A stretch of 64,000 nucleotides of DNA. Origin: Thermoplasmata archaeon. GTDB lineage: Archaea > Thermoplasmatota > Thermoplasmata > GCA-020350865. Both the position numbers and the translations under genes were made by a program. Below the pieces are notes generated by a model, which saw nothing but the letters and a program-made list of their open reading frames with translations, ran no database searches and was not told the origin of the DNA. Below are positions 52,601-56,203 of the stretch, piece after piece (position 1 is the stretch's first letter; the number at the start of each line of letters is the position of its first letter). The stretch covers positions 3,843,765 through 3,907,764 of the forward strand of contig CP070751.1 of assembly GCA_020348445.1 (NCBI GenBank), in the 5' to 3' direction.

Positions 52601-52661
52601 CTTCAATCGTCTTTGAGAATGAAGATTCATATAAATCTAATTTGCTATCCATAATAAACAA

Positions 52662-52724
52662 TAGCTCCGGGCCGAAGAAATACGATATAATTGATATGTC
52701 ATTATATTTCTAGGCAAGGGGCTA
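52662..52724 (-). repeat. tRNA-Gln acceptor-mimic hairpin W2
   Basis: Minus strand begins TAGCCCCTTGCCTAGAAATA and ends TATTTCTTCGGCCCGGAGCTA. The ends pair (TAGCCCC with GGAGCTA, one G-T pair) and so do AGAAATA and TATTTCT. The last nine bases, CCGGAGCTA, equal the 3' end plus discriminator A of the nearby tRNA-Gln. Nearly identical to W1, 91 bases away, including the downstream spacer. Confidence 0.6.
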
Positions 52725-52752
52725 CTCTGGATGACGACTAGAAAAAGATAAA

Positions 52753-52821
52753 GAGTAGCTCCGGGCCGAAGAAATAAGACCTAATTGATGTTCTATTATA
52801 TTTCTAGGCAAGGGGCTACTC
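52753..52821 (-). repeat. tRNA-Gln acceptor-mimic hairpin W1
   Basis: Minus strand GAGTAGCCCC...GGAGCTACTC gives a ten-pair outer stem with one G-T pair, with AGAAATA/TATTTCT inside. Same family as W2; each copy is followed by CTCTTTATCTTTTTCTAGTC-like T-rich spacer or its relic. No protein frame. Confidence 0.6.
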
Positions 52822-52849
52822 TGGGGGAAGACTAGAAAAAGATAAAGAG

Positions 52850-52951
52850 TAGCCCCGGGTGGATTCGAACCACCGCCTAAACCTTTTGGCATCTCCCTCC
52901 GCTGGGCAACCCCTCACAAAAGGTTTTAGGGTCATCCCAAAACTCGGGGTC
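52850..52951 (-). ncRNA. tRNA-like element with intact T-arm and replaced centre
   Basis: The minus strand ends GGTGGTTCGAATCCACC plus CGGGGCT and discriminator A, the same T-arm as the neighbouring tRNA-Gln(CUG). Its 5' end GACCCCG pairs with CGGGGCT over the inner five positions plus one wobble. In place of normal D and anticodon arms there is a long stem (CCTAAAACCTTTTG with CAAAAGGTTTAGG, one base bulged) closing on a G-rich loop. It is followed by CTCTTTATCTTTTTC. I read it as a degenerate tRNA-Gln or a processed tRNA mimic; an intron-bearing tRNA could not be reconstructed by eye. Confidence 0.45.
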
Positions 52952-52980: not shown

Positions 52981-53054
52981 TAGCTCCGGGTGGATTCGAA
53001 CCACCGTCACGGGATCCAGAATCCCGCATGATTGACCACCTACAATACGGAGCT
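52981..53054 (-). tRNA. tRNA-Gln (CUG), discriminator A73
   Basis: 74 bases with seven-pair acceptor AGCTCCG/CGGAGCT, D-arm TTGTAGGTGGTCAA, anticodon arm CGGGA-TTCTGGA-TCCCG (anticodon CTG at positions 34-36), T-arm GGTGG-TTCGAAT-CCACC, discriminator A and no encoded CCA. It starts with A1-U72 as archaeal tRNA-Gln do and resembles halophilic archaeal tRNA-Gln through the D-arm. A TATA-like AAAATAAATAATAT lies ~55-70 bases upstream. Downstream of it come the tRNA-like element and hairpins W1 and W2. Confidence 0.93.
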
Positions 53055-53233
53055 ATGTTTGTAACTTCTATGGACGAAATAGGTCCGTATTAAAGTGGAA
53101 AAACGATATTATTTATTTTTGCACATTTTTCCACGGGAATACGAAGCTTTTACTATTAATTTTGATATATTTCAATTAAGGTTTGTAAAAGCAAAACATG
53201 AACATAAAGTTTTATCGTATAAAAAGGGCGAAT

Positions 53234-54925
53234 TTAAGTTGTTTTTTGTTGCTGCTGTTTTTGAATCTTGGCCCATGTGTCCCTCAATCCGACGGTTCTG
53301 TTGAAAATCAGCTTCTCTGAGTTGGAATCTGGGTCCACACAGAAATAACCAAGTCGCTCGAATTGGATTCGATCCAACGGTTTAAGGTTCTTTACTGCAG
53401 GTTCTATCTTACATGATGTTAGAACTTCGAGGGAATTAGGATTAATGAAATCCTTAAAGTCCGCATCCTTATGTCCCGCGGGGTCCTTCTCTGTAAAAAG
53501 CTTGTCGTACAACCTAACCTCGGCATCCATTGCGTGGCGAGCTGAAACCCAATGCAATGTGGATTTTACTTTACGACCATCAGGTGCATTGCCCCCTCGC
53601 GTATCGGGATCCACGGTACATCTGAGCTCAACGACCTTCCCATTCTGTTTAATAGCCTCCTTGCACTTAACAAAGTACGCATATCTGAACCGCACCTCAC
53701 GACCTGGTGCTAAGCGGTAGAACTTCTTGGGAGGTTCCTCCATAAAATCCTCTTCCTCGATGCAAAGCTCCCTGGAAAAGGGTACCTTTCGAGTCCCTGC
53801 TGATGGGTCCTCTGGATTGTTTACAGCCTCCATCTCCTCCACCTTATCATCGGGGTAATTTTCAATAACCACCTTGAGCGGTTGAAGTACACCCATGAAC
53901 CTTGGGGCTGTTTTATTCAAATCTTCCCTTATACAATATTCAAGAAATTCGAAGTCAACCATACTGTTTACCTTGGCCACGCCGATTCGCTTGCAGAAAT
54001 TTCTAATTGCAGCTGGAGAATAACCTCGTCTTCTCATTCCGCTTATCGTGGGTAACCTGGGATCATCCCACCCATTGACGTGACCCTCATCCACCAATTG
54101 TTTGAGCATACGCTTGCTCATTACAGTATAGGTAATATTCAACCTGGCGAATTCAATTTGTTGTGGATGATAGACCTCTATTTGATCCAAGAACCAATCG
54201 TATAAAGGTCTGTGATTCTCGAACTCTAAAGTGCAGATGGAATGCGTGATGTTCTCGATTGAATCTTCAAGCCCGTGTGCCCAGTCGTACATGGGATAGA
54301 TGCACCATTTTTCACCTGTGTTGTGATGACTCGCATGTAGGATTCGATATACAATTGGGTCCCGCATATTCATATTTGGGTGCGACATGTCTATCTTGGC
54401 CCTAAGAACCTTTTCACCATCTCCAAACTCACCAGCCCTCATTCTTGTGAACACATCAAGGTTTTCTTCTATTGACCTATCACGATAGGGACTTTTCTGT
54501 CCGGGACTTGTAAGGGTTCCTCTTGTTCTGCTGATTTCATCTGCAGTTGAATCATCTACGTATGCCTTACCTCTTTTAACCAACTCAACAGCATAATCAT
54601 ACATTTGATCAAAGTAATCCGAAGCAAAAAAGAGCCTATCCTCCCAGTCAAATCCAAGCCATCTTACATCCTCGATTATAGATCTAACATATTCCTCTTC
54701 CTCTTTTGCTGGATTGGTATCATCGAATCTGAGATTGCACTTGCCCTTGTAATCCTCTGCTATGCCAAAGTTCAGGCAGATAGACTTTGCATGCCCAATG
54801 TGCAGATAGCCGTTGGGTTCGGGTGGGAACCTTGTATGAACTCGACCACCGTATTTATTCGTCCTTAGGTCTTCATTGATTATATCGCGAATGAAATCGT
54901 GAGCCTCTGCCTCTTCACTGGGCAT
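53234..54925 (-). CDS. glnS: Glutaminyl-tRNA synthetase (bacterial/eukaryal type)
   Basis: A 563-residue class I aaRS that charges tRNA-Gln directly. [23 protein letters not shown] holds the HIGH motif (~42), [16 protein letters not shown] follows, then [55 protein letters not shown], and [11 protein letters not shown] is the KMSKS loop as in E. coli VMSKRKL. A complete beta-barrel anticodon-binding half is present ([57 protein letters not shown]). I chose ATG 54925 with AAGGTG six bases upstream. Archaea usually lack GlnRS and use GluRS plus GatDE, so this gene is probably of transferred origin. It lies between three tRNA-Gln genes. Confidence 0.95.
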
Positions 54926-55075
54926 ATCTTTCACCTTAATGAGTTTGGGTTAGTAACATTTACTATTATAATTATTTTGTTAAAAGTTTTGATCTATGAA
55001 ATAAATATATTCACTCTCCCCTTACACACAAATATATATATAAAAAACAAATTCTGTTTTTATGGAGGTTAATAA

Positions 55076-55435: not shown

Positions 55436-55469
55436 GTAAAAAGCCCCGGCCCCGAGAAACAGATTCTAT

Positions 55470-55734
55470 CAGCCCCGGCCTCTTCGTGCTTAAGAACCCA
55501 ACATATCCAAGCATAACACGAAGAGAAAGGGGCTGTTTCGTTTCTCTACAATTTAAATTAGAGAAACAGCCCCGGCCAGAATCGAACTGGCGCCAAGAGA
55601 TCCAAAGTCTCTGATGCTACCTCTACACCACGGGGCTATTTGGTTGGAACATTAATTCAGTCAAATAGCCCCTTCGTAGTAAGAAAAGCTTTGGGTTCTT
55701 GCTAGGTTTTCTTTTCTTCCTACCACGGGGCTAT
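55470..55734 (-). repeat. tRNA-Gln module 1: hairpin-tRNA-hairpin unit
   Basis: A 265-base unit repeated at exactly +406 bases (55876-56140). In minus-strand order: hairpin Z1 (55734-55665, opens with ATAGCCCCGTGGTA, the tRNA 5' end, and closes with GGGGCTAT); a stem linking CAAATAGCCCC and GGGGCTATTTG across the tRNA 5' end (55632-55672); tRNA-Gln(UUG); a stem GGGGCTGTTTC/GAAACAGCCCC (55529-55573); and hairpin X1 (55535-55470, 66 bases, closing with GGCCGGGGCTG, the tRNA 3' end with its G73). A further stub of AGCCCCGGCC lies at 55442-55451. Confidence 0.8.
55567..55637 (-). tRNA. tRNA-Gln (UUG), discriminator G73
   Basis: 71 bases: acceptor AGCCCCG/CGGGGCT, D-arm GTGT-AGAGGTA-GCAT, anticodon arm AGAGA-CTTTGGA-TCTCT (anticodon TTG), variable TGGC, T-arm GCCAG-TTCGATT-CTGGC, discriminator G (complement of C55567), no encoded CCA. 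Body and A1-U72 pair are archaeal tRNA-Gln-like, but G73 is the discriminator favoured by bacterial GlnRS. It differs from the copy at 55973-56043 in the anticodon wobble base and one T-loop base only. Confidence 0.92.
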
Positions 55735-55757
55735 TTTACCACCACGGGGCTTCTTAG

Positions 55758-55773
55758 TTTTATTTATACTTTG
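55758..55773 (-). promoter_or_regulatory. TATA box before tRNA-Gln module 1
   Basis: Minus strand CAAAGTATAAATAAAA. Initiation ~25 bases on would fall at the AAGCCCCGTGGTGG stub (55752-55739), just before hairpin Z1. Confidence 0.45.
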
Positions 55774-55779
55774 ATACGA

Positions 55780-55846
55780 ATCCCCTTAGCATTAAGAAAA
55801 GCGTTCAAATTCTAATGGGAATTCTTTTCTTAATACCACGGGACTA
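55780..55846 (-). repeat. Degenerate Z-type hairpin between the modules
   Basis: Minus strand opens AGTCCCGTGGTATTAAGAAAAG and closes CTTTTCTTAATGCTAAGGGGATT: an eleven-pair ATTAAGAAAAG/CTTTTCTTAAT stem inside weakened acceptor-like ends. It is a third, more diverged member of the Z hairpin family within the 141-base spacer. Confidence 0.6.
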
Positions 55847-55875
55847 CTTTACTTTTATTTATTCAATTCTACTTT

Positions 55876-56140
55876 CAGCCCCGGCCTCCTCGTGCTTAAG
55901 ATCCAAGCGTTTTTAAGCATAACGCGAGGGGGAAGGGGCTGTTTCGTTTCTCTACAATTTAAATTAGAGAAACAGCCCCGGCCAGATTCGAACTGGCGCC
56001 AAGAGATCCAGAGTCTCTGATGCTACCTCTACACCACGGGGCTATTTGGTTGGAACATTAATTCATTCAAATAGCCCCTTTGCAGTAAAAAAAGCGTTGG
56101 GATAGTGTTGTGTTTTCTTTTTTTACTACCACGGGGCTAC
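55876..56140 (-). repeat. tRNA-Gln module 2: hairpin-tRNA-hairpin unit
   Basis: Second copy of the 265-base unit, offset by exactly 406 bases at every element: X2 55876-55941, stem 55935-55979, tRNA 55973-56043, stem 56038-56078, Z2 56071-56140. Loops and outer hairpins have diverged while stems still pair: in X the pair T14-A becomes C14-G, and in Z the pair G19-C becomes A19-T. That pattern indicates selection on structure. A stub AAGCCCCGAGG lies at 56155-56165. Confidence 0.8.
55973..56043 (-). tRNA. tRNA-Gln (CUG), discriminator G73
   Basis: 71 bases, same body as the UUG copy 406 bases away but with anticodon arm AGAGA-CTCTGGA-TCTCT (anticodon CTG) and T-loop TTCGAAT. Acceptor AGCCCCG/CGGGGCT, discriminator G, no CCA encoded. 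Differs widely from the A73 tRNA-Gln(CUG) at 52981-53054, so the genome has two distinct CUG decoders. Confidence 0.92.
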
Positions 56141-56192
56141 TGCACTCTTAAACAACCTCGGGGCTTATTTGATGCAAGAGAATGCATAAACA

Positions 56193-56203
56193 ATTATAAA
56201 AAT
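56193..56203 (-). promoter_or_regulatory. TATA box of the tRNA-Gln array
   Basis: Minus strand ATTTTTATAAT between the LysRS stop and the array. Initiation ~25 bases downstream falls at ~56168, immediately before the first AAGCCCCG stub, so the whole array can be one minus-strand transcript. Confidence 0.5.

What the first reader, a model, noticed from the sequence alone, without database searches (positions are those of the whole stretch)
55470..56140. Exact 406-bp-period tRNA-Gln array with acceptor-mimicking hairpins
Two 265-base modules, each hairpin Z - tRNA-Gln - hairpin X on the minus strand, sit exactly 406 bases apart at every element. Z hairpins begin with the tRNA's own 5' end (AGCCCCGTGGT) and X hairpins end with its own 3' end (GGCCGGGGCTG), so each tRNA is framed by imitations of its acceptor stem. 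Linking stems also pair the tRNA ends with the hairpins. Between copies, stems show compensatory changes (X: T-A to C-G plus two T-A to T-G; Z: G-C to A-T) while loops diverge. A third, diverged Z hairpin lies in the spacer, and TATA boxes precede each stub/Z unit. This looks like a maintained structured RNA: processing elements for RNase P/tRNase Z, GlnRS decoys or sensors, or a tRNA-derived mobile palindrome.
Basis: partly seen in the sequence, partly recalled or inferred. Interest (0 to 1): 0.88.

Follow-up and report, generated by a model that had tools for sequence, protein, structure and literature searches.

The report
Palindromic tRNA-end copies flanking tRNA genes
In this uncultured archaeon many tRNA genes, not only the two in the finding, are flanked by small DNA palindromes built from copies of the tRNA's own ends around a shared hairpin core; they look like tRNA-targeted mobile repeats rather than RNA mimics of tRNA.

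Summary
In detail: two 268-nt Z-tRNA(Gln)-X modules, 90% identical, lie exactly 406 nt apart. But it is one instance of a genome-wide pattern. In the window's genome, its genus-mate and a genome of another family of the same order, 64-71% of tRNA genes tested carry 5'-end copies upstream or 3'-end copies downstream, against under 1 gene expected per set. Copies stop in the D arm (nt 10-23) or start in the T arm (11-21 nt from the 3' end). They frame shared cores: X is an 8-bp stem with loop TTATG...TCTTAAG (50 hits in this genome, 31 in the genus-mate); Z is CGTGG...CCAC. X stems covary strongly, but G.U and A.C exceptions are equally common (35:38, versus 25:7 in tRNA acceptors), and the arms almost never reproduce the G3.U70 wobble of Ala/Arg acceptors. 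Complementarity is therefore kept at the DNA level; acceptor-mimic, decoy or sensor RNAs are disfavoured. A recent gain is visible: tRNA-Phe has a new Z between perfect 65-nt repeats and the genus-mate has the empty site. X cores also occur in dispersed repeats away from tRNAs, and some are inverted. Best reading: tRNA-targeted miniature palindromic repeats, homogenised by template switching. The mobilising enzyme is unknown.

The parts
56191..56202 (-). TATA-like promoter element upstream of the whole first array (inferred)
   Evidence: sequence TTTTTATAATTG about 26-37 nt before the first tRNA-5' copy; functional status not tested
56155..56165 (-). stub: truncated copy of the tRNA-Gln 5' end (AGCCCCGAGGT)
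   Evidence: (family D3)
56073..56138 (-). Z1 hairpin (5' element): tRNA 5' copy - stem - 22-nt loop - reverse complement of tRNA 5' end
   Evidence: z -5.3
55973..56043 (-). tRNA-Gln (CTG)
55876..55941 (-). X1 hairpin (3' element): reverse complement of tRNA 3' end - core - copy of tRNA 3' end; core 55887-55930
   Evidence: model R1 hit G000:3899651-3899694, E 1.2e-7
55779..55845 (-). Zmid, diverged third Z hairpin
   Evidence: z -5.4
55741..55751 (-). second stub, truncated copy of tRNA 5' end
55667..55732 (-). Z2 hairpin
   Evidence: z -6.2
55567..55637 (-). tRNA-Gln (TTG)
55470..55535 (-). X2 hairpin; core 55481-55524
   Evidence: R1 hit G000:3899245-3899288, E 8.7e-9
55442..55451 (-). terminal stub: extra copy of tRNA 3' end GGCCGGGGCT
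53078..53145 (-). Z-like hairpin upstream of the third tRNA-Gln
   Evidence: fold of 53060-53175, z -4.1
52981..53054 (-). third tRNA-Gln (CTG), different acceptor (AGCTCCG/CGGAGCT)
52654..52859 (-). tandem array (period 94, 2.2 copies) of X-like hairpins carrying this tRNA's 3' end (GGAGCTA)

Best explanation
The array is one local instance of a lineage-wide family of miniature DNA palindromic repeats specialised on the two ends of tRNA genes in a Thermoplasmatota order. A new unit arises when a short hairpin core enters the first 10-23 nt (D arm, giving Z) or the last 11-21 nt (T arm, giving X) of a tRNA gene, together with a direct duplication that leaves a truncated tRNA end on the far side and restores a complete tRNA gene. 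Units then multiply by tandem duplication and decay into stubs. The reverse-complement arms that make each unit a hairpin matching its own tRNA are created and kept perfect by DNA-level templating (template switching between inverted-repeat arms), which also inverts cores now and then. The 406-nt period is a later duplication of one whole Z-tRNA-X module followed by divergence, including of the anticodon (CTG/TTG). Shown: anatomy, genome-wide occurrence, shared covarying core, strand-symmetric pairing, one empty/filled site pair, inverted cores, dispersed non-tRNA copies. Inferred: the order of events, template switching as the homogeniser, and that copies move. Unknown: the enzyme.
For: Genome-wide: G000 29/41, G001 11/16, G002 9/14 tRNAs have a 5' copy upstream or a 3' copy downstream, against shuffle expectations below 0.3 per set and few wrong-side copies; a bacterial-type tRNA array in the same assembly 0/19; tRNAs on bacterial GlnRS contigs 1/18. 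Shared X core: 35 aligned copies, stem 94.6% paired, 66 double-changed cells vs 15.1 shuffled; searched by loop only, 34 of 37 hits have at least 6/8 stem pairs. R1 model: 50 hits own genome, 31 in genus-mate, 1 in another order, at tRNA-Val. DNA-level pairing: G.U:A.C 35:38 in hairpins vs 25:7 in tRNA acceptors, Fisher p 0.005; arms complement the copied strand at G3.U70. Turnover: tRNA-Phe in G000 has a Z core between perfect duplicates (21 nt of tRNA plus 44 nt of leader) while G001, with the same neighbours, has the empty site. Breakpoints confined to D arm and T arm. Inverted cores at Ala-GGC, Leu-GAG, Ser and Pro, as expected of spacer inversion by template switching (PMC8604942); template switching can create and maintain perfect stems with compensatory changes (PMC8794818). 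Eight dispersed repeats not belonging to a tRNA end carry the X core. The RNase P RNA gene shows no such flanks by eye.
Against: Only one clean empty/filled pair was examined, and loss in the other species is not formally excluded. No mobilising enzyme was tied to the elements: Y1 transposases exist in all three genomes but no X core was found in the Y1 loci examined, and Cas1 was not found. Roughly 90% of X cores beside tRNAs have one orientation and many lie at nearly constant distance (3' copy often at +84 to +91), which a random inserter would not give. The young Phe unit lacks the reverse-complement arm, so how arms are acquired is inferred. The X loop is conserved for some reason.
Confidence: 0.6

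Rival explanations
1. Structured RNA: Z and X are transcribed with the tRNA and act as processing elements for RNase P/tRNase Z, as aminoacyl-tRNA synthetase decoys, or as sensors.
For: Strong folds, strong stem covariation with conserved loops, Z lies between the apparent promoter and the tRNA, mostly constant orientation and distance; RNase P RNA is present in all three genomes.
Against: No G.U bias in stems; arms almost never copy the G3.U70 wobble; not Gln-specific; about a third of tRNAs show none; gain or loss between sister species; inverted cores; RNase P is not missing, so no compensating need is visible.
Confidence: 0.15
2. A functional DNA-level element (for example a terminator/insulator or replication-fork element at tRNA genes) maintained by selection, with the palindromes serving as protein-binding cruciforms or single-strand hairpins.
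For: DNA-level pairing, loop conservation, order-wide persistence with a different conserved loop in the other family (G002: CTCARTGCARTCTCTCCG), sporadic occurrence in other orders, X core also in dispersed intergenic repeats and in another class.
Against: Patchy presence, stubs, decayed copies, gain/loss; no binding protein known.
Confidence: 0.15
3. Remnants of integrated elements: successive integrations of tyrosine-recombinase elements or casposons at tRNA genes left duplicated tRNA ends (att/TSD remnants).
For: tRNA-end duplications are the hallmark of such elements; tRNA fragments from integration are widespread in archaea (PMC9897764); the casposase of Aciduliprofundum boonei integrates at a tRNA 3' end with a 14-15 bp duplication (PMC6614799).
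Against: Both ends of the same tRNA are used; inserts are short hairpins with shared cores, not decayed islands; Cas1 not found in the three genomes.
Confidence: 0.08
4. Relatives of transposing tRNA introns: the Z core is a mobile intron-like hairpin and the flanking units are by-products of its insertion plus tRNA-gene duplication.
For: A Z-like core (CGTGG..CCAC) lies inside the T loop of a tRNA-Ser (L246) and, by eye, of a tRNA-Gly (L251), while the G001 tRNA-Gly(CCC) lacks the insert; large-scale tRNA intron transposition is known in Thermoproteales (Fujishima 2010, cited in PMC4090602).
Against: No X core found inside a tRNA; flanking units lie outside the mature tRNA; BHB splice motifs were not tested.
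Confidence: 0.12

Closest known systems
REP/BIME, MITE-like and other palindromic repeats such as yeast mitochondrial GC clusters (PMC4478555)
   Same: Short palindromic intergenic repeats, copy-number variation, target duplication, diversification.
   Different: Units are confined mainly to tRNA ends, and their outer arms are copies and reverse complements of the particular tRNA next to them; no transposase linked.
E. coli tyrT downstream repeats (rtT RNA, Rfam RF00391; from memory)
   Same: Tandem units downstream of a tRNA that repeat the tRNA 3' end.
   Different: Single locus in E. coli, no genome-wide family, no 5' counterpart, no shared hairpin core; no RF00391 match here.
Casposon and integrase insertion at tRNA 3' ends (PMC6614799, PMC9897764)
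   Same: tRNA end duplicated as target-site duplication or att site.
   Different: No element genes or terminal inverted repeats seen, no Cas1; 5' ends used as well.
tRNA intron transposition in Thermoproteales (Fujishima et al. 2010, via PMC4090602)
   Same: Related inserts spread among different tRNA genes of one archaeal lineage.
   Different: Here most units flank the gene and duplicate its ends instead of interrupting the mature tRNA.
Template-switch (quasipalindrome) mutation (PMC8604942, PMC8794818)
   Same: Homogenises inverted-repeat arms, creates compensatory double changes, inverts spacers.
   Different: A general mutation process; it does not explain the shared cores or the tRNA targeting.

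Membership tests
Miniature mobile palindromic repeat (MITE/REP-like) | Multiple copies of a shared palindromic core in one genome | tested here: met
   50 X cores in G000, 31 in G001
Miniature mobile palindromic repeat (MITE/REP-like) | Presence/absence between close relatives with target duplication | tested here: met
   tRNA-Phe: Z with perfect 21+44 nt duplication in G000, absent in G001; one locus only
Miniature mobile palindromic repeat (MITE/REP-like) | Cognate transposase (Y1/RAYT or other) | tested here: inconclusive
   Y1_Tnp 5/5/1 copies, no X core found in the eight Y1 loci examined
Casposon | Cas1-type casposase in the genome | tested here: not met
   PF01867 absent in G000, G001, G002; assemblies are 81-89% complete
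Casposon | 14-15 bp target duplication at tRNA 3' end | tested here: inconclusive
   3' copies are mostly 11-21 nt long, but 5' ends are duplicated too
rtT RNA (RF00391) | Match to the Rfam model | tested here: not met
   Only tRNA (RF00005) reaches gathering score in the window
Structured regulatory RNA / acceptor mimic | Covarying stems with G.U favoured over A.C on the transcribed strand | tested here: not met
   35:38 vs 25:7 in tRNA acceptors
Structured regulatory RNA / acceptor mimic | Reproduces acceptor identity such as G3.U70 of tRNA-Ala | tested here: not met
   Z arm has C in all cases listed, X arm nearly always A
Structured regulatory RNA / acceptor mimic | Discrete transcripts of hairpin size | not testable with these tools
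   no transcriptome available
tRNA intron transposition | Related inserts within several tRNA genes with BHB splice motif | tested here: inconclusive
   Z-like core in the T loop of tRNA-Ser and tRNA-Gly; BHB not tested

The most novel reading that the evidence does not exclude
Thermoplasmatota harbour a dedicated tRNA-end palindrome system in which an unknown recombinase or replication-linked activity recognises the conserved core hairpin and writes reverse-complement copies of each tRNA terminus beside its gene, a templated tRNA-terminus-copying activity kept across orders because it does something for tRNA genes (protection against integrating elements, termination, or fork control).
Probability: 0.2. 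Interest if true: 0.88.

Novelty: new variant of a known kind. Interest (0 to 1): 0.68.

Why it matters
tRNA genes are well-known targets of large integrating elements, but a genome-wide family of tiny palindromes that copies and inverts the ends of many different tRNAs, on both sides, was not found in the literature searched. It warns that strong stem covariation with conserved loops can be DNA palindrome homogenisation rather than RNA function, and gives a simple test (G.U versus A.C asymmetry, and G3.U70). It also offers a natural system in which shared cores, breakpoints in D and T arms, spacer inversion and tRNA intron gain can be studied together.

Tried and rejected
GlnRS-specific function: rejected, elements flank tRNAs of many specificities. 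Missing RNase P as a reason for odd leaders: rejected, RNase P RNA found in all three genomes. Known RNA families: none besides tRNA at gathering score; a permissive scan of nine loci gave only tRNA hits and matches below each family's cut-off. Casposon: Cas1 absent. Link to Y1 transposase loci: no X core found there. Viral or phage origin: no exact X-core pattern in viral contigs, no similar phage DNA. Orthology versus mobility by core-loop similarity: only weakly higher between orthologous tRNAs (0.78 vs 0.69), inconclusive with few pairs. Kink-turn and BHB-type motifs in the internal loops were looked for by eye without a convincing match.

Full report
WHAT IS IN THE WINDOW. The reported structure exists. 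On the minus strand two modules of 268 nt, 90% identical, are spaced by exactly 406 nt and each holds hairpin Z, a tRNA-Gln (CTG 56044-55972, TTG 55638-55566) and hairpin X. Z1, Zmid, Z2, X1 and X2 fold with z-scores between -4.2 and -6.2 and the whole strand with z -9.2. Truncated stubs of the tRNA 5' end (56165-56155, 55751-55741) and of the 3' end (55451-55442) accompany them. The neighbours are a class I lysyl-tRNA synthetase upstream and a bacterial-type glutaminyl-tRNA synthetase downstream (TIGR00440, 755 bits), then a third tRNA-Gln with a different acceptor that has its own upstream Z-like hairpin and a 94-nt-period array of X-like hairpins ending in that tRNA's own 3' end.

THE ORGANISM. 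The genome (5.16 Mb) is unnamed; the closest named hit by GlnRS is CP070739.1, 'Methanomassiliicoccales archaeon isolate bin396' (83% GlnRS identity), which matches genome G001 of the same genus in size and coordinates. I place the lineage in Thermoplasmatota by inference from these hits.

IT IS GENOME-WIDE. Searching the rest of the genome showed the same architecture at tRNA-Ala (three isoacceptors), Ile, Thr, Arg, Tyr, Phe, Gly, Ser, Leu, Asp, Lys, SeC and others: upstream units [copy of tRNA 5' end - core - usually a reverse complement], downstream units [reverse complement of tRNA 3' end - core - copy of tRNA 3' end]. The arms follow the sequence of the tRNA they adjoin. A fixed statistic (10-mer copy, at most one mismatch, within 300 nt) gives 29/41 tRNAs in the own genome, 11/16 in G001 and 9/14 in G002 (same order, other family), with shuffle expectations below 0.3 per set and wrong-side copies 4, 0 and 0. 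A bacterial-type tRNA array in the same assembly gives 0/19; tRNAs on bacterial GlnRS contigs 1/18. In other orders of the class 10/52 tRNAs are positive, among them clear cases at tRNA-Gln, Thr and Asn, plus a tRNA-Val with the same X core, so the habit is wider than the order but patchy.

THE X CORE. Downstream units of this genus share a core: an 8-bp stem closing a 27-29 nt loop that begins TTATG (or TTATA) and ends TCTTAAG. In 35 aligned copies the stem is 94.6% paired, with 66 double-changed cells against 15 in shuffles. Searching by the loop alone, without any demand on the stem, 34 of 37 hits have at least 6 of 8 pairs. A covariance model finds 50 copies in the own genome, 31 in G001, one at a tRNA-Val of another order (G041) and none in 57 other relatives. 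In the own genome 39 copies adjoin complete tRNA genes (several with large introns: His, Trp, Gly, Ser), 2 adjoin tRNA-Val 3' remnants, 8 belong to one dispersed intergenic repeat and 1 is solitary (assignment of some intron-bearing tRNAs was by eye). A phylum-wide scan adds dispersed repeats with the same loop signature in one family (f39) of another class. G002 has a different conserved loop (CTCARTGCARTCTCTCCG) with covarying stems in the equivalent position (read by eye).

DNA OR RNA? Three observations speak for DNA. First, exceptions to Watson-Crick pairing are strand-symmetric: G.U 35, A.C 38 over arms and X cores, against 25:7 in the tRNA acceptors of the same loci (Fisher p 0.005). 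The X-core copies were chosen by a rule that counted G.U as paired and A.C as unpaired, so the excess of A.C (9) over G.U (2) there is conservative. Second, where the acceptor stem has the G3.U70 wobble (Ala, Arg), Z units carry C and X units nearly always A at the partner position: the arms are reverse complements of the copied strand, not imitations of the acceptor stem. Third, several cores are inverted between otherwise intact arms (Ala-GGC, Leu-GAG, Ser, Pro). Arm homogenisation and spacer inversion are known products of template switching between inverted repeats (PMC8604942), and template switching can create and maintain perfect stems with compensatory changes (PMC8794818). So the covariation here is not by itself evidence of RNA function.

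HOW UNITS ARISE. At tRNA-Phe of the own genome a Z core of about 49 nt sits between two perfect copies of a segment made of 44 nt of leader and 21 nt of tRNA; G001, with the same neighbouring genes and promoter, has no such unit. The unit is therefore recent, and it brings a core (CTCGTGGCGC..GCGCCACTGACT) of the same kind as cores at other tRNAs. Across units the 5' copies end at tRNA nt 10-23 and the 3' copies start 11-21 nt from the tRNA end, that is in the D arm and T arm. Tandem units and stubs show later duplication and decay. A Z-like core also interrupts the T loop of a tRNA-Ser (L246) and, by eye, a tRNA-Gly (L251), linking the family to tRNA intron gain, for which intron transposition is known in Thermoproteales (Fujishima 2010, via PMC4090602).

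WHAT IT IS NOT. It is not Gln-specific. It does not compensate for a missing RNase P. It is not a known Rfam family. Casposase integration at tRNA 3' ends is known in Aciduliprofundum (PMC6614799), but no Cas1 was found in the three genomes and 5' ends are used too. Y1 transposases are present but no X core was found in the loci examined. No viral or phage match. Literature searches found no description of such flanking palindromes; the library is partial.

VERDICT. A real and striking pattern, best read as tRNA-targeted miniature palindromic repeats with template-switch homogenisation (confidence 0.6). The enzyme, the reason for loop conservation and the largely fixed orientation remain open, and a functional DNA or RNA role is not excluded.

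Noticed in passing
window 53234-54934 (-): Bacterial-type GlnRS in an archaeon, next to tRNA-Gln genes; closest non-archaeal relatives are Sedimentisphaerales/Phycisphaerae (71-74% identity), and in other Thermoplasmata the GlnRS gene is flanked on both sides by tRNA-Gln genes.
   Followed up: partly
G000:C1:4639800-4644400 (L203): Dense array of about 19 tRNA genes with bacterial-type or divergent tRNAs and none of the flanking palindromes; possibly contamination or a viral/plasmid region in this single-contig assembly.
   Followed up: no
L246, L251: T-loop inserts (introns) in tRNA-Ser and tRNA-Gly that contain the Z-like core CGTGG..CCAC; tRNA-Gly(CCC) of the genus-mate (L188) lacks the insert.
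   Followed up: partly
L253, L255, L258, L259, L260, L261, L248, L204: Dispersed intergenic repeat (eight copies) CATCGTGGCCTAT..ATAGTCCACTTTG + X core CCCTTAGGTTATG..CTTAAGCCTAAGGG, mostly not beside tRNAs.
   Followed up: partly
L307-L318 (family f39, another class): Dispersed palindromic repeats with the same TTA..TCTTAA loop signature, e.g. ATTTCCTG-TTATGCTGAAATATTGCTCATCTCTTAAG-CAGGAAAA.
   Followed up: partly
L254, L256: Two loci where a tRNA-Val 3' end plus linker and X-type unit persist without the tRNA body, with the same upstream sequence: apparent dispersal of a broken unit.
   Followed up: no
L047 vs L171: tRNA-Phe of the own genome also has a 30-nt intron after the anticodon that the genus-mate lacks.
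   Followed up: no
L022, L163, L164: Solitary X cores preceded by a hairpin GATGTTCT..AGAACATC and partly conserved flanks, shared between the two genus members, away from annotated tRNAs.
   Followed up: partly
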